A stretch of 64,000 nucleotides of DNA, from assembly GCF_016925615.1 (NCBI RefSeq), contig NZ_CP070499.1, positions 2,108,001 through 2,172,000 on the forward strand, given 5' to 3'. Shown piece after piece: positions 55,945 to 63,587 of the stretch; positions within the stretch are counted from its first letter, which is position 1; the number at the start of each line of letters is the position of its first letter. This DNA is from Natronosporangium hydrolyticum (GTDB lineage: Bacteria; Actinomycetota; Actinomycetes; Mycobacteriales; Micromonosporaceae). The position numbers and the translations under genes were made by a program. Below the pieces are notes generated by a model that saw only the letters and a list, made by a program, of their open reading frames with translations, made no database searches and had not been told where the DNA came from.

Positions 55945-57441
55945 TCAGCCAAGACTCGCGGTGAACCGAGACAGCGCCTGAGCTAGCGTCGCGTCGAGCA
56001 CATGCTCGACATTGTCCCATTGGGCGCTGGGAGGGTCGGTGTGAACCCAGGTGACTGTCTCGGTAGGGGTGGACACCACCGCTAGTTCGGGTTCACCTCG
56101 GCTGTCGTCGTTGCGGGCGCCAAGGATCTCCGCATAGGCGGTAAGGGTCAGCACTCCGGTCTCACCGCGGCCCACCTTCTGGAGGAAGGTGAGATAGCGC
56201 AGCGTCTGACCGAGCACGTCCACTTGAAGTCGGGTCCACCACACCCCCTCCTGAAGATTCGCGTAGAAGTCAACGCTGTTCGCGGCCTGGACTACCTGTC
56301 GCCGCCAGTAACGGGCTTCCTCCTCCGGAGGGGCGGCGGAGAGCACCGATGTCCGGGCGGCCGGGTCGATACCCTCGCGGAGCCGGTTCTCAATCCGACC
56401 CGCCATCTCCGACAGCCAGGTCACGACTTGGTCCTGCACGCTGCTACCGAGCCGCTGCACGGCCGCGGCCCGTTCGGCCGCCCCAGCGGTGCCACGTAGC
56501 CCGCGAAGTCGTTCGATGCCGGCGTCGAGGACGCCGATGGCGCCCCGTCCGGCATCGGCGAGTTCGGCGGCGACCGGCTGCTCCAGCTCGCTGCGCAGCG
56601 CGACGATCTCCAACTCTGCGAAAAACCGCACCAGCGGTCGGAGATCCCCATCGTTGGCCCGGTCGAGGACTCGCAGGTAACGATCGCGCTCGCGGCGGTC
56701 GATCACCATCGGTGCGAAGTCGTGCCGCAGCAGGCCCAACAGGGTCAGGCAGCGCGCTACCCGCCCATTGCCGTCCTCGAACGGATGAATGCGGACGAAT
56801 CTATGGTGCAGCCAGGCCTCACGAACTACCGGGTCGACGTGCCGGTAGCGGTGGTAAAACTCGACCAGTCGCTCGATCTGCGGCTGGACCTGCTCCGGTG
56901 GCGTGTAGTCCAGCACGGACCCATCAGATCGCTCTACCCAGTTTGCCTGTCGTTTCCACTCGCCATGATGGAGGGTGGCTTCGAAGACCATACCGGCTGG
57001 CGACATCGCGGTGAACGTGGACTGGTTTCGAGTGAGCGCGACGTGAAGCTCCCGGATCAGCGAGGTGGACAGCTCCCGGCCTTGCCTAGCCACATCCGCA
57101 AGGAACTCTAGCGCTTCATACTGGGTCCGGATGAGCCGCAGCACGTCCTCGGATATCGAGCCATCGACAGACCGGTTTACGGCGTCAGCGGTCAGTCCTT
57201 CGGCTACGAGCGCATGGGTTACGCCCCAGTCGACATCGTACAGGCGCTCGATGATCCCGGTCTCGATCGCGTGCCGGCGCAGCGACCGACGGCGGGCCTC
57301 GTGAAAGGCGTCGGTGTTCGCCGAGACCACCGCCTGCCACGCCCGCTGGAGGGAATGCACTGGAGCCAGCACCGAGTCGAGGGCACCGTTGACCTCAGGC
57401 AACGGCTCCACGTCAACCCACCGGGCGGCCTCCACCGACAT
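55945..57441 (-). CDS. Fic-domain protein (putative AMP/UMP transferase)
   Basis: A 498-aa Fic protein with the complete motif HPFEDGNGRVAR (about residues 215-226), so it is probably active in transferring a nucleotide monophosphate to a target. The N-terminal stretch ETGIIERLYDVDWG looks like the class II inhibitory helix (S/TxxxE-G/N), with Arg in the last position. The C-terminal 250 residues are helical with no known domain. Start uncertain (ATG 57441; GTG 57435 or TTG 57459 possible). Codon use is less GC-extreme than in the neighbours, a hint of transfer. Confidence 0.88.
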   Translation of the reverse strand: MSVEAARWVDVEPLPEVNGALDSVLAPVHSLQRAWQAVVSANTDAFHEARRRSLRRHAIETGIIERLYDVDWGVTHALVAEGLTADAVNRSVDGSISEDVLRLIRTQYEALEFLADVARQGRELSTSLIRELHVALTRNQSTFTAMSPAGMVFEATLHHGEWKRQANWVERSDGSVLDYTPPEQVQPQIERLVEFYHRYRHVDPVVREAWLHHRFVRIHPFEDGNGRVARCLTLLGLLRHDFAPMVIDRRERDRYLRVLDRANDGDLRPLVRFFAELEIVALRSELEQPVAAELADAGRGAIGVLDAGIERLRGLRGTAGAAERAAAVQRLGSSVQDQVVTWLSEMAGRIENRLREGIDPAARTSVLSAAPPEEEARYWRRQVVQAANSVDFYANLQEGVWWTRLQVDVLGQTLRYLTFLQKVGRGETGVLTLTAYAEILGARNDDSRGEPELAVVSTPTETVTWVHTDPPSAQWDNVEHVLDATLAQALSRFTASLG

Positions 57442-57591: not shown

Positions 57592-58383
57592 CTAGGTGTG
57601 GCCTGCCAGCGGGCCGTTCGGGGTGGGCGGTGCTGCCGTCATCTGCCCTACGGTTCCGAGCCGATCGCCCAGGTCGCTGCGCCGGAAGGCCGCGAAGACC
57701 GCCGCCAACTGGTCCAGCAGGTACCGCCGTTCCTCCTGGCCCAACCCGGTGAGGAACTCCCGGAGCAGGGTGGCGATGGTCTGCTGCGGGTCCTCAGGGG
57801 TCTGCCCGAGCCGCTCGGCGATCTGTTCGAACCGGTCGCTGAGCAGCTCGTCGAGGGCCTCGGGGTGGTGCCGGAGCCAGTAGCTGCGGGCCACCTCCGG
57901 ACGGGTGAAGACCTCTCGCAGGTAACGGAGCTCGTTGCGTTCGACCTCCCGGCGCAGCCGATCCAATGCCAGCTCCCGGTGCAGTTCCTCCCATTGCAGG
58001 GCGGCACGCCTGCTCGCTGCTGGCGCATCCAACGTCACCGATCCGGCGACCAGGACAAGGTCGGTGCCGGGCAGCGAGCGGGTAGCGGCGAGCCGCTGCG
58101 CAAGTCGAGTCTGCACCGCTGGCACGTCGCTCGGCACGTCCCGGGCGGTGATGGCGGCGGCCCATGCTCGGACCGCTTCGGCGAGCTGCTCATGGTCCGT
58201 TGCCTCCGCCGGGGTGGTGTTGTACCACTCGACGGTGAACCACGCCTCGAACGGCGCTCCCGGCAGCGCGCTGGGCAGCCTTGACTCGAAACTGGACGCG
58301 CTTAGTTGCCGGGTGGGGGTCGGCTCGGCGACCGGCGGCGACCACCAGTCATGCCACCACTGTCGCCACGTACTCTGCGTCAT
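57592..58383 (-). CDS. Unknown protein with central coiled coil (conflict module)
   Basis: A 263-aa protein that I do not recognise. Residues 1-30 are Trp/Pro-rich; residues 40-120 may form an alpha/beta domain (WFTVEWYN, LVLVAGSVTLD). Residues 125-170 are a charged amphipathic helix (ELALDRLRREVERNELRYL) suited to oligomerisation, and the C-terminal part is helical. It overlaps the NTPase-like gene by 35 nt, so it is the third gene of that operon. A GTG at 58392 is an alternative start. Confidence 0.7.
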   Translation of the reverse strand: MTQSTWRQWWHDWWSPPVAEPTPTRQLSASSFESRLPSALPGAPFEAWFTVEWYNTTPAEATDHEQLAEAVRAWAAAITARDVPSDVPAVQTRLAQRLAATRSLPGTDLVLVAGSVTLDAPAASRRAALQWEELHRELALDRLRREVERNELRYLREVFTRPEVARSYWLRHHPEALDELLSDRFEQIAERLGQTPEDPQQTIATLLREFLTGLGQEERRYLLDQLAAVFAAFRRSDLGDRLGTVGQMTAAPPTPNGPLAGHT

Positions 58384-60481
58384 CGATTCCACCTTCCTTG
58401 TCGTCGGGGCCAGCGTTTGGTAGTCGGTCGGTCAGCCGCAGCGTGGTGAGCAGCCGTTCCCGCAGCCGATCGCGGGTGGCTCGCTGCGCGGCGGGCGTGC
58501 CGGGGTCGGTGCTGGCGTGCCAGCGAAGCACCAGGGTGTAGAGCCGGGCGGTGCGCGGGGCCGCCGTCGTCCCCTGTGCCGCCTCCCGCCACAACGCCGC
58601 CACTGCTCGCCAGCAGGCGCCGTCGCTGATAGCCAGCTCTAGCCAGGCGAACGCCGCGTCGGCCAGGTCGGCAGTGGTCCCGGGGCGGTCCAGCGTGGTG
58701 GTGATCGCGGTCACCAACGCGTGCCAATCCGGTCGATCGGCGGCGGCCACCACGAGCGGGCAACCGGCGGGTTCCGGGGACTCACCGATGCGGGCCAGCG
58801 CCGTCGCCGCCGTCGCGGCGGCGGGTTCGTCGCCGGTCGTCAGCCACCGGCACAGGCGGCGGAGCACCGGCCGGCGCAGCGGCGGCCGGCGCCACAGCTG
58901 CGCCACCGCCGCGGCCACCCGCTCGCGGGTGGCCGGGTCGTCGCGGCCGGCGAGGTGGCCCAGCCGGGTGAGCGCGATCTCCGGGTACGCGTCGGCGAGA
59001 TCGCCCTGGCAAACCTCGATGACGGCCTGGTGGACGGGCAAGGGCCGGTTGGAGCGCGCCAACTCGTACAGCAGCGAGCGGGTCGTCCGCCCCACCTCCC
59101 GGCTCAGGCCCGCGGTGGTGAGCAGTTGCACCAGGGTGGGGCGTAGCTGGTCGTTGCCCGACCATTCCCCGATCACCAGGTGCAGCAGTCGCTCGTGCCG
59201 ATCCTGGTAGAGCCCGTGTAGGAGGGAACCGGCGATCGGGGCGGCCACCTCCGCCCGAGCCACCGCGGGTAGCTCCAGCGGAAACTCGATCGCCGCCCGC
59301 CAGGTGCGGTAGGCGCAGACCTTGGTGCGGTCGGTACGCACGAAGTCGAGCACCGCGGGGCCGTAGCCCGGTTTCGGCAGGCTGACCCGGCCCGCCGTGT
59401 CGATCCGCGCTCCGGCTGCGCTGGCGAGGGCGTGCAGCCCGTTGCCGCCGAGGCCGTCCCACTCGGCCCGGGTGGCGAGCGCCCGGCCGATGAACTCCCC
59501 GAGGTGCAGGATGAGCTGCCCGTGGCAGCCGGCCAGGAAGGCGGTCGCCACCAGGAACAGTCGGCTGCGCTGGTCGGGGTGGTCGCGGAACCATTCGGTG
59601 AGCTGGCGGTACCAGTGGCTGAAGGCGTCCGCAACCTCCTGGGCGAGTGCGGCGGTCGACCGGTCCGCGTCCTGGCTGGTAGCTACGACCAACTCGGCCA
59701 GCCGGGCCACCTCGCGCGGTGGCGCGGCCGTCACCAGCGCGGTGACGGTGGCGTGGCGGCCCACCGCCCGGGCAGCGGAGTCTGGGTTGAGCCGGGACAC
59801 CTCCGTCGCCAGCAGGGCCAGCGGGTCCGGGGGCTGGACCGACAAGACCGTCTTGTCCCGCTGACCGCCGATCATGCGCCAGGTCTCCGGGCTGGCGACG
59901 ACCACCAGGTAGGAGCTGTGCGTGGCTAGCTCTTCGCGGTACGACTGGAGGTCGCGCGCGAAGCTGTCGCCCAGGGTCCGGCCCCCGCTGTCGGGGAGCT
60001 CCAGCAGGTAACCGTGGGCGCTCTCGGTGGGCAGCTCGGTGACGGACAACCACTGTGTGCCGTACGGCTCGATCGGGATCTCCTGTATCGGCAGGTCGAG
60101 CGTGGCGAGCACCCCGACCGCCGCGGTGTGCCGCCCGGTGCCGGGCTCACCGAGCAGCACCAGCGACCCGGCGGCGGCGAGTAGTTCGCCGGCACCGACC
60201 CGGTCGAGGCACGCTCCCGCGTCGCTGCGGTACTCCCGCGCCACGAAGGTAGCCGCCACCGTCGCCAGATACGCGCGCCCTCGCGGGGTCGGGCGTGCCC
60301 GGGCTGCTTGCTGGTAGACGTTGGTGATGGTCTGGCGGTGCAGGTGCATGCCGCCGTGGACCGTGTTGGCCGCCTGCCCGAGGTTGTCCCGGGCCACGGT
60401 CGGGGCGAGCGTCGGTACGTGACTGGCGGCTGGTTCGTCGATCCACTCGGCCGGTGGGTAGGCGAGCGAGGTGGAGGTCAT
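58349..60481 (-). CDS. NTPase-like protein with atypical P-loop and VHGGM motif
   Basis: A 710-aa protein. Residues 31-49 carry a short motif (N-L-G-Q-A-A-N-T-V-H-G-G-M-H-L-H-R) also found in the upstream protein. A P-loop-like GEPGTGRHT at 111-119 has Arg117 where Lys is expected; GYLLELPDSGG may be the Walker B counterpart. Residues 330-710 are Ala/Arg/Leu-rich helices resembling HEAT or TPR-type repeats. The architecture recalls STAND-type sensors of bacterial conflict systems, though no family is certain. ATG 60481 overlaps the cyclase-like gene (ATGA). Confidence 0.75.
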   Translation of the reverse strand: MTSTSLAYPPAEWIDEPAASHVPTLAPTVARDNLGQAANTVHGGMHLHRQTITNVYQQAARARPTPRGRAYLATVAATFVAREYRSDAGACLDRVGAGELLAAAGSLVLLGEPGTGRHTAAVGVLATLDLPIQEIPIEPYGTQWLSVTELPTESAHGYLLELPDSGGRTLGDSFARDLQSYREELATHSSYLVVVASPETWRMIGGQRDKTVLSVQPPDPLALLATEVSRLNPDSAARAVGRHATVTALVTAAPPREVARLAELVVATSQDADRSTAALAQEVADAFSHWYRQLTEWFRDHPDQRSRLFLVATAFLAGCHGQLILHLGEFIGRALATRAEWDGLGGNGLHALASAAGARIDTAGRVSLPKPGYGPAVLDFVRTDRTKVCAYRTWRAAIEFPLELPAVARAEVAAPIAGSLLHGLYQDRHERLLHLVIGEWSGNDQLRPTLVQLLTTAGLSREVGRTTRSLLYELARSNRPLPVHQAVIEVCQGDLADAYPEIALTRLGHLAGRDDPATRERVAAAVAQLWRRPPLRRPVLRRLCRWLTTGDEPAAATAATALARIGESPEPAGCPLVVAAADRPDWHALVTAITTTLDRPGTTADLADAAFAWLELAISDGACWRAVAALWREAAQGTTAAPRTARLYTLVLRWHASTDPGTPAAQRATRDRLRERLLTTLRLTDRLPNAGPDDKEGGIDDAEYVATVVA

Positions 60482-61317
60482 CGGTGGCTCCCCGTCTCGG
60501 GCCGGTGCATCGACATGCCGCCGTGGACCACCCCCGCCACTTGGCCATAGTTGGAGCCGGACTGGACCGCGCCCTCCGGCGTTGCCACCGGCTGCTCGGG
60601 TGCGCCTGGATCGGCAGCCGGGGGCGGCGCGCACGGCTCGGGGGCCACCGCGGGTGAGCCGACCGTCAGCAGGTTCCCCGACGGCGCGGGCACCCGCAGC
60701 CAGGCCCGTTGGGTGAACCCTTTGCCTGGGACGGTCGCCGGGACCTCGATGAAGTGGTCCGGGTGCAGGCTGGTGTAGCCGGCGGCCACCACATCCTGGA
60801 AGATCCGGTCGGAGAGGATGGCGGCGACGAAGGTCACCCGCGGGCTGGCGGCCGAGAGGATCGCGCGGACCGGCGTCGAGTCGAGTAGCCGGTGGGTGTC
60901 GTTGCGGGGGGTGCCGCCCCCGCCGGTGAAGGGCTGCGCCGGGTCGGCCGGCAGCGGCCCGACATGCAGACTCACCCGCAGCCGCAGTAGCGCCTCCGCG
61001 CGGCGAGAGCCGCTGTTGTGGGCGGCCAGCACCTGTTGCAGCTCGGCGAGCAGCGGGTCTACCAGGTACGGCAGCGCCCGGGGCGGGACCCCGACGGCGA
61101 ATCCGTCGCCGGTGGGGCCGAAGAAGGCGGGCTGGTTCCACACCTCTGCCAGGCCGATGTTCTCGAAGGCGGTGCCGGTCAGTCGCGGGATTAACCCGCT
61201 GATCGGCTGGTGCGCGACGCTCGGCTCGGCCGTGAAGTCCTTCGCGTCCACTGCCAGGATTCCCAGGTAGTCGGGTAGGTCCCGAGCACCGGAGAACGGG
61301 GGGAGTTCGGTCGCCAT
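60478..61317 (-). CDS. Class III nucleotidyl-cyclase-like protein
   Basis: A 279-aa protein whose first 190 residues follow the class III cyclase fold. AVDAKDFT gives metal Asp24, GPTGDGFAVGV gives the second metal Asp71, LRVSLHVGPL is the core strand and RNDTHRLLD gives Asn139 and Arg143 of the transition-state pair. The purine-selecting Lys is not evident, so the base used is open. A Pro-rich linker leads to the C-terminal motif N-Y-G-Q...V-H-G-G-M-S-M-H-R (255-272), shared with the next protein. ATG 61317 has AGGGG upstream; GTG 61320 is possible. Confidence 0.72.
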   Translation of the reverse strand: MATELPPFSGARDLPDYLGILAVDAKDFTAEPSVAHQPISGLIPRLTGTAFENIGLAEVWNQPAFFGPTGDGFAVGVPPRALPYLVDPLLAELQQVLAAHNSGSRRAEALLRLRVSLHVGPLPADPAQPFTGGGGTPRNDTHRLLDSTPVRAILSAASPRVTFVAAILSDRIFQDVVAAGYTSLHPDHFIEVPATVPGKGFTQRAWLRVPAPSGNLLTVGSPAVAPEPCAPPPAADPGAPEQPVATPEGAVQSGSNYGQVAGVVHGGMSMHRPETGSHR

Positions 61318-61428
61318 CACGTACCCCTATCTGTCGATAGTGTCTGGTGTGGCTAGCATGGGCCCCTTCGGGAGCCGCTTCCGCCCATTACTGGGCAGAT
61401 CTGCTGTGACCTATCGCATCGAGGAGCG

Positions 61429-62094
61429 TTACGGCTGTGCGTACCCGGCGAGCCCGGAGCGGTCGCGAATGATGATCGTTTTGCGGTGGGTGGTGAGCAA
61501 CCCGGCGGTGCGAAGCTCAGCCAGCGCCACCACTACCGCGTTACGCGAGGCGCCGACGAGTTGTGCCAGGTCCTGCTGCGACAGCTGCACCTCGGGCCGG
61601 TCACCCGGACCGTTGCCCGCTCCGAGCCGCAGCAGCGCCCGGGCCAACCGGGACCGGACCGGCAGCAACGCGAGTTCCCCGCGCAGCTCGGCGGACTCCC
61701 GGACCCGAGCCATGGTGTAGTGCAGAAAACTGGCCGAGACCGCCGGGTCGGCGGTGAACCGGCGCAGTTGTTCACCGGTGAGTAGGCGGGCGGTCACCGC
61801 GCTGATCGCGGTCACGGTGGCGGAGCGCGGTTGACCGTCCAGCGCCGCCAGCTCCCCGATCACGTCTCCGCCGGCGCGGACCGTAAGGATGGTCTGGCCC
61901 CCGGTGGGTTCCGAACGTTGGATCTTCACCGCGCCTCGGAGCAGCACGTACGCGTGTCTGCCCGACTCGCCTTGCTGAAAGAAGATCTGCCCTTGGCGGA
62001 AGGACACCCCGACCCCGAGGCGGGCGAGCGCCGACCACTGCGCTGCCGGCAGCAGGCCAGCGAGCCCGCGCTCGCCCGCTGACTCACCGCGCAC
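61429..62094 (-). CDS. Crp/Fnr-family transcriptional regulator
   Basis: A 221-aa regulator with an N-terminal cyclic-nucleotide-binding domain and C-terminal winged helix (LSQQDLAQLVGASRNAVVVAL). The phosphate-binding cassette GELAALDGQPRSATVTA keeps the Glu and Arg that hold a cyclic nucleotide. It lies 111 bp upstream of the cyclase-like gene on the same strand, so it may sense that protein's product and control the module. No Cys cluster for Fe-S or heme. GTG start at 62094 is likely but not certain. Confidence 0.88.
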   Translation of the reverse strand: MRGESAGERGLAGLLPAAQWSALARLGVGVSFRQGQIFFQQGESGRHAYVLLRGAVKIQRSEPTGGQTILTVRAGGDVIGELAALDGQPRSATVTAISAVTARLLTGEQLRRFTADPAVSASFLHYTMARVRESAELRGELALLPVRSRLARALLRLGAGNGPGDRPEVQLSQQDLAQLVGASRNAVVVALAELRTAGLLTTHRKTIIIRDRSGLAGYAQP

Positions 62095-62153: not shown

Positions 62154-63587
62154 CTAGGAGTTCACCCCGCCCGGCCGCCGCCTCACCAGCGACGAGGCCG
62201 GTGCCGGGCGCTTCGGGCGGTAGACCAGCAGCGTGCCGGGGAGCTTGCCGAAGCTCAGCGTGTCGGTGCGACCACCAGCTTCGCCATCGTGGGCCACCGG
62301 CAGCGCGCCGTCGAGCGAGTCCACATGCACCGTCTTAGCGAGGCGGGCGTGGTAGAGCCCGTCGCGGCCGCTGAGGCCGGCCAACGTCGACAGCACCGCG
62401 CGGGCTCGGGAGAAGCGGGCGTCGGCGCGCAGAAACTGCACGTCGAGCCAGCCGTCGTCGAGCCGCGGTCGCCACGCCGGGGTATTGCCCTGTGGCCGGT
62501 ATTCACCGTTGCCGACGAACAGGGTCCACACGGTGGCCGGTTCGCCGTCGATCCGTAGCCGCAGCGGTTCGTGCCGGCGGAGCACCTGGCCGGCCGCGAC
62601 CGCCATCGCCAGCCACTTGCCCCATTGTGGCTCCAGCTGCTCCCGGCGGCGGACCATCTCCGGGTAGGCGCCGATGACCGCGGTGTTGAGGAAGGGCCGG
62701 CCGTTGATCGTGGCGACATCGACCGCCACCGCCTCACCGCTGGCGAGCGCCTGCAGCGTGTCCTGGACGGCTGAGATGTCGGCGTCCCGGGCGAAGTGGT
62801 TGAGGGTGCCGGTGGGGAAGACCGCTAGTGGCAGGCCGTGCCGCAGCGCCGCCGCCGCCACCGAGGCCACGGTGCCGTCGCCGCCGGCCGCGCCGAGCGC
62901 CCGGGCGTCCGGTGCCTGGCCGGCGAGTTCGGCGTCGAGGTCGACTTCGTCGGTGAGTTCGATGAAGCTCGCCGCCGGCAGTGCCGCCTTGAGCTGGGGG
63001 CCGGGGTCCCCGTTCGGGCCGGAGCGGGGATTGAGCACCACCACGAGACCTTCGCCCTGCTCTATCCGGGGAGCCGGCAGGTAGGGGCGGAGCCGGGGCG
63101 GGCCGGCGACCGTCAGCGGCCACCAGCGACGGGTGGCGAGGGCGAGGCCGGCGCCGAGCGCGGCCCCGGCGACCACGTCGCTGGCGTAGTGGACTCCGAC
63201 GTGGACCCGGGAGTAGCCGACTGCGGCGGCGAGCGGCGCCACCGCGGCGCCGGCGAGCGGGCTCTCCAGGGCTACTCCGGTGGCGAAGGCGGCGGCCGAG
63301 GCGGCGTGGCCGCTCGGGAACGAGCCGCTGGTCGGGGTGCGGCGCAGTTGCCGCACCACCGGGGTCCGGTCCACGGCTGGGCGTTGCCGCTGGGCGAGCG
63401 GCTTGAGGACGGCGTTGGTGATCAGGCTGGTGGCGGCGAGGGCTCCGAGTCCGCGGATGGCGGCGCGGCGGGTGCGGCCAGGGATCAGCAGGCCGGCGGC
63501 GGCCACCGCCAACCAGAGCCGGCTGTAGTTGGCTGAGTTGCTCAGCATTCGCATTGTGTGGTCGAGCCGGGTTCCGGTGGCGGTCAT
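62154..63587 (-). CDS. PAP2 phosphatase-diacylglycerol kinase fusion
   Basis: A 477-aa bifunctional lipid enzyme. The N-terminal PAP2 domain (about 20-165, four or five helices) has KPLAQRQRP, PSGHA and SRVHVGVHYASD. The C-terminal DAGK/sphingosine-kinase-like domain (about 180-465) has VVLNPRSGPNG and GGDGTV. It may interconvert phosphatidic acid and diacylglycerol-type lipids at the membrane. Confidence 0.92.
   Translation of the reverse strand: MTATGTRLDHTMRMLSNSANYSRLWLAVAAAGLLIPGRTRRAAIRGLGALAATSLITNAVLKPLAQRQRPAVDRTPVVRQLRRTPTSGSFPSGHAASAAAFATGVALESPLAGAAVAPLAAAVGYSRVHVGVHYASDVVAGAALGAGLALATRRWWPLTVAGPPRLRPYLPAPRIEQGEGLVVVLNPRSGPNGDPGPQLKAALPAASFIELTDEVDLDAELAGQAPDARALGAAGGDGTVASVAAAALRHGLPLAVFPTGTLNHFARDADISAVQDTLQALASGEAVAVDVATINGRPFLNTAVIGAYPEMVRRREQLEPQWGKWLAMAVAAGQVLRRHEPLRLRIDGEPATVWTLFVGNGEYRPQGNTPAWRPRLDDGWLDVQFLRADARFSRARAVLSTLAGLSGRDGLYHARLAKTVHVDSLDGALPVAHDGEAGGRTDTLSFGKLPGTLLVYRPKRPAPASSLVRRRPGGVNS

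What the first reader, a model, noticed from the sequence alone, without database searches (positions are those of the whole stretch)
57592..62094. Candidate cyclic-nucleotide conflict/defence module: Crp regulator, cyclase-like, NTPase-like, coiled-coil protein
Four same-strand genes, three with overlapping ends, combine a class III cyclase-like protein with intact catalytic residues, a large P-loop-variant repeat protein sharing a tag motif with it, an unknown coiled-coil protein and a Crp/Fnr regulator whose cNMP cassette is intact. The pairing of messenger maker, messenger sensor and STAND-like switch is typical of bacterial conflict systems. I know of no described system with exactly this set. 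The link to defence is inference.
Basis: partly seen in the sequence, partly recalled or inferred. Interest (0 to 1): 0.85.

Follow-up and report, generated by a model that had tools for sequence, protein, structure and literature searches.

The report
Tag-paired cyclase, sensor and regulator operon
Four bacterial genes form a widely shared, little-annotated cassette in which a messenger-making enzyme and an immune-receptor-like protein carry matching tags, and many relatives add a known anti-virus membrane effector, so it looks like an undescribed way of triggering cyclic-nucleotide immunity.

Summary
57592-62094 encodes, on one strand, a Crp/Fnr regulator, a class III nucleotide-cyclase-fold protein (CYC), a 710-aa STAND/NLR-like protein (NTP) and a 263-aa protein (CC). 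Crp precedes CYC in 79 of 80 named homologous loci; NTP and CC follow in 70 of 80. Distribution is patchy: 21 of 61 genomes, own included; 0 of 2 congeners.

First, the shared "tag" is a matched pair: CYC tail and NTP head resemble each other within a locus but differ between loci (own partner best in 16 of 17 representatives; 0 of 20,000 permutations). Second, a PycTM-family (Pycsar effector) gene often follows CC: it is near CYC in 36 of 80 loci, and 20 of 62 class-wide PycTM genes lie within 6 kb of CYC against 0.1 expected. The window's genome has no PycTM match.

Best reading: an NLR-like sensor switches on a cyclase by tag-tag assembly; the messenger drives Crp and, where present, PycTM. 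Defence is suggested, not shown. NTP lacks the Walker A lysine in 82 of 84 members, so it is probably no NTPase.

The parts
61429..62094 (-). Crp/Fnr-type regulator (221 aa), cNMP-binding domain plus Crp wHTH
   Evidence: Pfam cNMP_binding E 2.6e-19 and HTH_Crp_2 E 5.7e-16; adjacent upstream of CYC in 79 of 80 named loci (the stricter rule counts 78); cassette conserved
61382..61397 (-). Candidate Crp operator TGCCCAGTAATGGGCG in the Crp-CYC gap
   Evidence: One mismatch from TGCCCA-N4-TGGGCA (with 2 mismatches the window has 3 matches, 3.7 expected by chance, so the evidence is its place, not its rarity). Palindromes in the same gap of relatives: relaxed TGCCC-type in 21 of 81 loci (shuffle mean 0.49), strict TGYSC-N6-GSRCA in 6 of 81 (0.61), GTGRC-N4-GYCAC in 28 of 81 (0.18); 0 of 81 upstream of Crp for each; none of these three script patterns matches the window site itself. 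No genome-wide excess
60478..61317 (-). CYC: class III nucleotide cyclase-fold protein (279 aa) with a tag at its C-terminus
   Evidence: AlphaFold model, 152 residues with pLDDT 90 or more; Foldseek and VIA-align matches are class III cyclases, best Z 15.2, rmsd 3.8, 175 aligned; catalytic residues conserved
60502..60555 (-). CYC C-terminal tag SNYGQVAGVVHGGMSMHR (residues 255-272)
   Evidence: Window CYC tail scores best with its own NTP head among 17 representatives; pLDDT under 50 over residues 237-267
58349..60481 (-). NTP: STAND/NLR-like protein (710 aa), degenerate P-loop domain followed by a HEAT-like solenoid
   Evidence: AlphaFold pLDDT 81.9, pTM 0.80; Foldseek top 50 includes NOD2 (first), NLRP3, NAIP5 and AVAST5 among many solenoid proteins; Pfam nSTAND3 weak in 3 of 34 members; weak PADLOC OloA match E 0.0016
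60335..60388 (-). NTP N-terminal tag DNLGQAANTVHGGMHLHR (residues 32-49)
   Evidence: residues 1-67 have pLDDT under 50
60119..60151 (-). Degenerate Walker A motif GEPGTGRHTAA (residues 111-121)
   Evidence: Lys position is R in 55, A in 19, L in 5, K in 2 of 84 proteins
57592..58383 (-). CC: conserved third operon protein (263 aa), no known family, Trp-rich N-terminus
   Evidence: Same family by iterated HMM in 70 of 80 named loci; no Pfam match in 33 members; N-terminal membrane-helix-like stretch in 2 of 84 homologues by hydropathy, not in P0003

Best explanation
The operon is the sensing and messenger-making core of an undescribed, Pycsar-like conflict system. Proposed sequence: (1) NTP, an NLR-like protein with a pseudo-P-loop and a HEAT-like solenoid, senses an invader or damage signal (inferred). 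(2) Its short N-terminal tag assembles with the matching C-terminal tag of CYC, bringing CYC domains together; PycC cyclases are reported to have their active sites at a dimer interface (pairing shown statistically; assembly inferred; a prion-like cross-beta state is one possibility). (3) CYC makes a 3',5'-cyclic mononucleotide of unknown base (predicted fold and conserved residues shown; product not). (4) The messenger binds Crp, which acts on a palindrome in the Crp-CYC gap and so adjusts expression of the operon (palindromes in the gap of many relatives shown; binding and direction of effect inferred). (5) In just under half of related loci (36 of 80) the messenger also opens a PycTM membrane effector encoded close to CYC, usually just after CC (gene linkage shown; action inferred from published Pycsar work). 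CC may place the complex at the membrane (weak inference). In the window's genome PycTM was not found, so step 5 is missing or done by something unrecognised.
For: Operon conservation: Crp next to CYC in 79 of 80, NTP and CC in 70 of 80 each. Tag pairing: own partner ranks first in 16 of 17 representatives, 0 of 20,000 permutations; controls with another NTP region or the catalytic domain show nothing; repeated with the last 60 aa of CYC (15 of 17 rank 1, 0 of 20,000) and with the window as the one locus of its tag class (11 of 12, 0 of 20,000); partial Mantel r 0.53 controlling for cyclase domain (0 of 2000) and 0.20 controlling for NTP body (2 of 2000), n 43. Cyclase fold and residues. NLR-like matches. 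PycTM after CC: 37 of 77 callable fifth genes, 33 of them starting 4 nt inside the CC stop; near CYC in 36 of 80 named loci; 10 of 14 PycTM genes in 19 genomes lie within 6 kb of a CYC match (compared by eye, positions; 17 of the 19 genomes had been chosen for having CYC); 20 of 62 class-wide versus 0.108 expected. RefSeq annotation of a Streptomyces plasmid reads Pycsar effector, Crp/Fnr, hypothetical (CYC). Gap palindromes.
Against: No PycTM match in the window's genome. No PADLOC model, PycC included, matches CYC in 16 members at E 0.01. Walker A Lys missing in 82 of 84, so a classical STAND nucleotide switch is unlikely. Resemblance to two published RHIM-like amyloid peptides reaches z over 4 in 4 of 336 comparisons, none from the window. 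Once NTP-body relatedness is controlled, tag covariation is modest (r 0.20). The TGCCCA-N4-TGGGCA motif shows no genome-wide excess, 16 sites against 14 for the control, so no wider regulon is evident. Of 62 class-wide PycTM genes, 38 are not within 10 kb of a listed CYC match (the CYC list was truncated). No phage record carries a match. No infection phenotype or nucleotide was measured.
Confidence: 0.55

Rival explanations
1. A developmental or stress signalling cassette of filamentous actinomycetes: CYC makes cAMP or a similar messenger and Crp switches genes in hyphal differentiation; NTP is a scaffold. PycTM-linked loci would be an offshoot.
For: The 80 named loci are mostly Streptomyces, with Actinoplanes, Micromonospora and Salinispora; Crp is the most constant partner (79 of 80); loci without a recognised PycTM are common, 44 of 80, and include the window.
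Against: Patchy occurrence; 0 of 2 congeners; window flanks shared with no other locus compared; matches on 12 plasmid records, all below 60 percent identity; link to PycTM, and remote homologues combined with CATRA or ThsA macro domains; no excess of operator-like sites.
Confidence: 0.2
2. A member of the actinobacterial EAD-coupled conflict systems of Kaur et al. 2020 (VMAP or iSTAND types) in which the tag merely replaces an EAD: ordinary apart from the tag.
For: That work describes cNMP cyclases and effectors tied to core components by a duplicated adaptor domain in adjacent genes, and CRP-like factors linked to some systems (passages seen). Remote CYC relatives include a CATRA-containing protein.
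Against: No EAD, VMAP, vWA or MoxR family was reported by Pfam for the window proteins or for the NTP, CYC and CC alignments; the tags are short, Gly/Asn-rich and differ between loci rather than being a folded domain. The passages seen do not describe the Crp-CYC-NTP-CC order; the whole papers were not read.
Confidence: 0.15
3. The tags pair by an ordinary folded contact (for example a small beta-solenoid or strand exchange) that holds a constitutive CYC-NTP complex, with no prion-like templating. The rest of the pathway is as in the best explanation.
For: Some Streptomyces tails continue with GDxxxGNK-like repeats after the tag; the window tag shows no clear match to published amyloid peptides; both tags are low-confidence stretches in the monomer models, which does not discriminate.
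Against: Matching C-terminal and N-terminal motifs in adjacent genes is the layout reported for bacterial NLR-associated amyloid motifs (PMC8086366, passages seen); 15 Streptomyces-group loci add a small tag-bearing protein and a second tagged NTP-like protein, which would suit a polymerising system.
Confidence: 0.35
4. The locus in the window is a decayed or orphan remnant that lost its effector and no longer functions.
For: No PycTM match in the genome; 10 of 80 named loci lack an intact NTP frame, two of them because the contig ends, and on one plasmid an IS701 transposase gene appears to interrupt NTP.
Against: All four window genes are open with intact catalytic and ligand residues; close relatives L033, L035, L036 and L052 also show no PycTM next to CC.
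Confidence: 0.12

Closest known systems
[quoted passage not shown]
   Same: Class III cyclase-fold enzyme beside a cyclic-nucleotide sensor; many homologous loci carry the same effector family, PycTM (PF18967). The Crp protein resembles the PycTIR sensor part (PADLOC PycTIR E 1.9e-12).
   Different: CYC is not matched by PADLOC PycC models; the operon adds an NLR-like protein, CC and a Crp transcription factor, and tags join cyclase and NLR-like protein. The window genome has no PycTM match. Product base unknown.
Bacterial NLR-associated amyloid signalling motifs (BASS; Dyrka et al. 2020, known here only through PMC8086366)
   Same: Matched short motifs at the C-terminus of one protein and the N-terminus of the neighbouring NLR-like protein, diverse between loci but matched within a locus.
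   Different: The partner is a nucleotide cyclase rather than a Bell-domain effector; amyloid nature untested; BASS profiles were not available here.
EAD-coupled conflict systems (Kaur et al. 2020, PMC7159879; 2021, PMC8195603; passages seen)
   Same: Adaptor copies in adjacent genes proposed to couple cNMP cyclases to STAND or other core proteins; actinobacterial, variable.
   Different: No EAD or VMAP domain reported by Pfam; short tags instead; fixed Crp-CYC-NTP-CC order.
NLR/NACHT STAND proteins (NOD2, NLRP3, NAIP5, AVAST5)
   Same: Foldseek places NOD2 first (E 1.4e-4), with NLRP3, NAIP5 and AVAST5 in the top 50; P-loop-like domain followed by a solenoid.
   Different: Walker A Lys missing in 82 of 84; sequence families barely match (nSTAND3 in 3 of 34); TM-scores are low.

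Membership tests
Pycsar | Class III cyclase fold with both metal Asp, transition-state Arg and phosphate Lys | tested here: met
   VIA-align Z 15.2 (rmsd 3.8, 175 aligned) to an adenylate cyclase; uridylate cyclases 7r65 Z 13.4 (4.4, 177) and 8jsz Z 13.2 (4.9, 183); D24, D71, R143, K199 in 84 of 84. Residue roles are recalled.
Pycsar | Cyclase recognised by PycC family models | tested here: not met
   0 of 16 CYC proteins matched any PADLOC model at E 0.01; P0001 none at E 1
Pycsar | PycTM or PycTIR effector with the cyclase, in the window's locus | tested here: not met
   No PF18967 match at E 0.001 in the window genome; no TIR family in the five window proteins scanned
Pycsar | PycTM effector with the cyclase, in homologous loci | tested here: met
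   36 of 80 named loci; 20 of 62 class-wide PycTM genes within 6 kb of a listed CYC match, 0.108 expected
Pycsar | Makes cUMP or cCMP; abortive infection | not testable with these tools
   Needs enzymology and phage tests
NLR-associated amyloid signalling (BASS) | Matched motif pair at effector C-terminus and NLR N-terminus in adjacent genes | tested here: met
   16 of 17 rank 1, 0 of 20,000 permutations; repeats
NLR-associated amyloid signalling (BASS) | Motif similar to known BASS or RHIM-like motifs | tested here: inconclusive
   4 of 336 comparisons with two published peptides above z 4, none from the window; BASS1-10 profiles not on hand
NLR-associated amyloid signalling (BASS) | Cross-beta fibres and seeding | not testable with these tools
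   Needs peptides
STAND NTPase | P-loop NTPase fold with superstructure-forming repeats | tested here: inconclusive
   NOD2 Foldseek E 1.4e-4 with TM-score about 0.2; VIA rows are mostly HEAT-type solenoids and AAA+/ORC proteins, AVAST5 Z 10.9 at rmsd 26.2 over 381 residues; nSTAND3 weak in 3 of 34
STAND NTPase | Functional Walker A lysine | tested here: not met
   Lys in 2 of 84 only
Crp/Fnr regulator | cNMP-binding domain with intact phosphate cassette and Crp HTH | tested here: met
   Pfam; G80 91 of 91, R90 89 of 91
EAD-coupled conflict system | EAD, VMAP, vWA or MoxR domain in the operon | tested here: inconclusive
   None reported by Pfam; whether all EAD models are in this copy was not checked

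The most novel reading that the evidence does not exclude
A form of immunity not found in our literature searches (of an open-licence library): an NLR-like pseudo-NTPase nucleates a second-messenger cyclase through a locus-specific, prion-like matched tag, so that receptor assembly is converted directly into cyclic mononucleotide, which then drives both a Crp transcription factor and a membrane-opening effector. The tag works as a private address, changed as a pair, and in some Streptomyces it is shared with a tag-only adaptor and a second receptor. This CYC family would be the missing cyclase for many PycTM genes annotated without one.
Probability: 0.35. Interest if true: 0.92.

Novelty: new variant of a known kind. 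Interest (0 to 1): 0.8.

Why it matters
It links three themes usually kept apart: NLR-like sensing, matched (possibly amyloid) tags between receptor and output, and cyclic mononucleotide immunity. It gives a concrete candidate cyclase for actinobacterial Pycsar-effector genes that sit beside 'hypothetical' neighbours, and a natural series of matched tag pairs with which receptor-to-enzyme signalling specificity can be tested directly. It also raises an open question: whether a cyclic nucleotide made in defence is read by a transcription factor as well as by a killing effector.

Tried and rejected
Housekeeping operon: disfavoured because the distribution is patchy, the window's flanks are unshared, and the gene upstream of Crp and the Fic gene downstream of CC have only weak, partial matches in the 10 relatives tested (6 of 10 and 3 of 10); no clean empty site was shown. 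Fic gene as part of the module: no Fic match beside CYC in the 20 loci; the 80 named loci were not tested for it; left out. Wide Crp regulon: 16 operator-like sites against 14 in the reversed control; not supported. Amyloid identity of the window tag: not supported by comparison with two published peptides. Other tag-bearing genes in this genome: one extra pattern match against one control match, so chance level. Phage carriage: no match in 50,697 phage records. NTP also has one weak PADLOC match, OloA (E 0.0016, 15.8 bits, residues 431-609), which I take to be a solenoid resemblance and did not follow.

Defence neighbours: of 130 proteins sampled (from 196) around 20 loci, 6 matched PycTM with PADLOC at E 1e-15 and with Pfam at E 1e-6; 0 of 130 control proteins (sampled from 210 in random regions of the same kind of genomes) matched PycTM with PADLOC at E 1e-15; the control was not scanned with Pfam. 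In all, 49 PADLOC families were hit in flanks and 7 in controls, but at least 20 of the 25 flank families shown are reverse-transcriptase models hit by one member each, so no general defence-island claim is made. The flank sample includes genes at module ends (PycTM itself). Of 24 random control regions drawn, 20 were printed; two of these held or lay next to CYC matches and were moved by hand before fetching.

Rows dropped: the duplicate L032 (same locus as L052), L055 (the script chose a start downstream of its tag), L046, L048, L049, L107 (downstream gene not of the NTP family) and loci with a downstream gene under 400 aa were left out before counting (84 kept; 17 greedy representatives below 62 percent identity in the cyclase domain). 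L041 is the one representative that failed to rank first; L047 ranks first but its matching stretch is proline-rich, not a clear tag. In one search, 81 of 91 loci had a gap stretch of at least 100 nt and were counted; many are related Streptomyces, so counts are not independent. Gene starts and neighbours come from a simple GC3-based script, not a full gene caller. CC and NTP membership at remote loci rests on iterated HMMs (20 to 85 and 56 to 86 members over four rounds) and could drift.

Full report
What is there. The window is 2108001-2172000 of a 5.70-Mb single-contig genome. The four genes are real, on one strand and in the order Crp, CYC, NTP, CC. CYC and NTP overlap by 4 nt and NTP and CC by 35 nt; Crp lies 111 nt upstream of CYC. 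Of the four, only Crp matches a Pfam family above its cut-off; CYC and CC match none at E 1, and NTP only HEAT_2 below its cut-off. PADLOC has nothing for CYC or CC and one weak match for NTP, OloA at E 0.0016. NCBIfam has nothing for NTP or CC and a chance-level match for CYC at E 0.67.

How widespread. In 61 genomes (own included) 21 have a CYC match at E 0.001; eight of these, own included, are close (48 percent identity or more), and neither of the two other members of the genus, both drafts, has one. A scan of one genome per species gave 94 related places, of which the best 80 were kept: Actinoplanes, Micromonospora, Salinispora, Plantactinospora, Streptomyces, Kitasatospora and others. 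In those 80 loci a Crp-family gene lies directly upstream in 79; the stricter script counted 78, missing L079, where the CYC frame was extended over Crp; L068 has none. An intact NTP-family gene follows in 70 and a CC-family gene in 70; of the 10 misses, two are contig ends. In a class-wide sample, 108 of 393 genomes have a CYC-family match at E 0.001, including remote ones. Twelve plasmid records, all below 60 percent identity, and no phage record have a match.

The tags. Across loci this is a matched pair: the C-terminal tail of CYC and the N-terminus of the next protein carry the same short Gly/Asn-rich motif, while the motif itself changes between groups of loci. Examples: NxGQVAGTVHGGMHQ-like in the window and in Actinoplanes, Micromonospora and Salinispora loci; GNINTGTVHGGQSV or NTQHVGEGAAVMGNVGRDITY in Streptomyces; MNFSGASGTFVGVNQNSTNHGKQNY with MDFSSASGMFSGINQNSPNHGTQNY in a remote locus. 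Among 17 representatives below 62 percent identity in the cyclase domain, the own partner scores best in 16, and none of 20,000 re-pairings reaches the observed mean; CYC tail against another NTP region, and catalytic domain against NTP N-terminus, show nothing. With all 84 loci, where relatives share a class, the own partner is first in 21 and the median rank is 7, still 0 of 20,000. With the last 60 residues only, 15 of 17 rank first; with the window as the one locus of its class, 11 of 12. Partial Mantel correlations over 43 loci are 0.53 controlling for the cyclase domain and 0.20 controlling for the NTP body, so part of the signal is shared ancestry and part is not. Both tags lie wholly or largely in low-confidence stretches of the monomer models.

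The proteins. CYC is predicted as a class III cyclase: the 38 Foldseek matches at E 0.001 or better are class III cyclases, except one entry titled only a hypothetical protein, and VIA-align gives Z 15.2 (rmsd 3.8, 175 aligned) to a photoactivated adenylate cyclase and 13.4 (4.4, 177) and 13.2 (4.9, 183) to two uridylate cyclases. So the fold does not say which base is used. The residues I recall as metal, transition-state Arg and phosphate Lys ligands are invariant in 84 sequences, and the Asn is kept in 77. NTP has a P-loop-like domain and an alpha solenoid; Foldseek puts NOD2 first and lists NLRP3, NAIP5 and AVAST5, although TM-scores are low and most other rows are solenoids. Its Walker A Lys is replaced in 82 of 84, so I read it as a pseudo-NTPase sensor. 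CC is unknown; two remote homologues have an N-terminal membrane-helix-like stretch. Crp has an intact phosphate cassette. At the C-helix position that I align by eye, from recalled E. coli numbering, with the base-contact Ser128, most members have Asp (65 of 91) and the window has Ala, which hints at a ligand other than cAMP but does not identify it.

Link to Pycsar. Among 130 proteins sampled around 20 loci, 6 matched PycTM, the Pycsar membrane effector; 0 of 130 control proteins did (PADLOC, E 1e-15; Pfam agrees for the flanks). Looking directly with an HMM built from 14 genome matches, PycTM is found in 45 of 100 sources scanned (99 loci plus the window; one of these lies 7.3 kb upstream), near CYC in 36 of the 80 named loci, and in 33 of 77 callable cases it is the fifth gene with its start 4 nt inside the CC stop. 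In 19 whole genomes, 17 of them picked for having CYC, 10 of 14 PycTM genes lie within 6 kb of a CYC match (compared by eye). In the class-wide sample, 20 of 62 PycTM genes are within 6 kb of a listed CYC match and 24 within 10 kb, against 0.108 expected within 6 kb under uniform placement (the CYC list was truncated). A Streptomyces plasmid record carries the series Pycsar system effector, Crp/Fnr regulator, hypothetical protein (CYC), hypothetical protein, IS701 transposase. PycTM was not found in the window genome. Published work describes PycTM and PycTIR as receptors of cyclic pyrimidines made by PycC (PMC11224242, abstract and passages seen). Remote CYC-family matches lie in proteins that also carry CATRA domains or a ThsA macro domain.

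Variants. Fifteen loci without a recognised PycTM have instead a small tag-bearing protein followed by a second protein that looks like NTP and carries the tag (an NTP HMM match to this second gene was seen in L092; the others were judged by eye).

Regulation. In 81 loci with a gap stretch of at least 100 nt between Crp and CYC, 28 hold GTGRC-N4-GYCAC, 21 a relaxed TGCCC-type palindrome and 6 the strict TGYSC-N6-GSRCA form, against shuffle means of 0.18, 0.49 and 0.61, and none upstream of Crp; related loci are counted separately. The window has TGCCCAGTAATGGGCG there, one base from a symmetric form, but it matches none of the three script patterns. There is no excess of this site in the genome, so I infer local control only.

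Mechanism and level of proof. Shown by computation: operon, conservation, tag pairing, predicted cyclase fold and conserved residues, intact Crp cassette, PycTM linkage in relatives. Inferred: sensing by NTP, tag-driven assembly, cyclase activation, messenger identity, Crp and PycTM activation, defence.

Novelty. The ideas of adaptor pairs joining cyclases to core conflict proteins (PMC7159879, PMC8195603; passages seen), of NLR-associated amyloid motifs (PMC8086366; passages and one section seen) and of Pycsar (PMC11224242) are known. I found no description of this four- or five-gene set in searches of an open-licence library, which lacks most subscription papers; I did not see the original Pycsar and BASS papers. 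I therefore call it a new variant of a known kind and do not file the window locus as Pycsar, because two tested features are not met there.

Noticed in passing
55945-57441 (-): A Fic-domain protein (Pfam Fic E 5e-16; PADLOC SoFic and PDC-S04 models) starts 150 nt downstream of CC on the same strand; no Fic match beside CYC in the 20 loci.
   Followed up: partly
62154-63587 (-): The gene just upstream of Crp looks from its sequence like a PAP2 phosphatase fused to a diacylglycerol-kinase-like lipid kinase (my reading, not searched against families); only weak partial matches in 6 of 10 relatives.
   Followed up: partly
L077, L087, L090, L092, L094-L097, L099, L100, L109, L111, L113, L117, L126: A small tag-bearing protein (58-274 aa open frames) is followed by a second NTP-like protein with the tag: a possible tag-only adaptor with a second receptor.
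   Followed up: partly
L050:6716-8719 and L051:7826-9412: Remote CYC-family matches lie in proteins that also carry a ThsA macro domain (Thoeris) or CATRA-N/CATRA-C domains.
   Followed up: partly
L201 (NZ_CP108260.1 176129-188686): On a mobilizable Streptomyces plasmid the cassette has PycTM before Crp, and an IS701 transposase gene appears to sit within the NTP region; an N-6 DNA methylase is nearby.
   Followed up: no
Flanks of the 20 loci sampled (individual locus not identified): A flank protein matches reverse transcriptase models strongly (PADLOC RT_III-A, best E 2.7e-151).
   Followed up: no
L047:5061-8156: A locus with two Crp-like genes and a PycTM gene between them upstream of CYC.
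   Followed up: no
58349-60481 (-): NTP has a weak match to the PADLOC OloA model (E 0.0016) over its solenoid.
   Followed up: no
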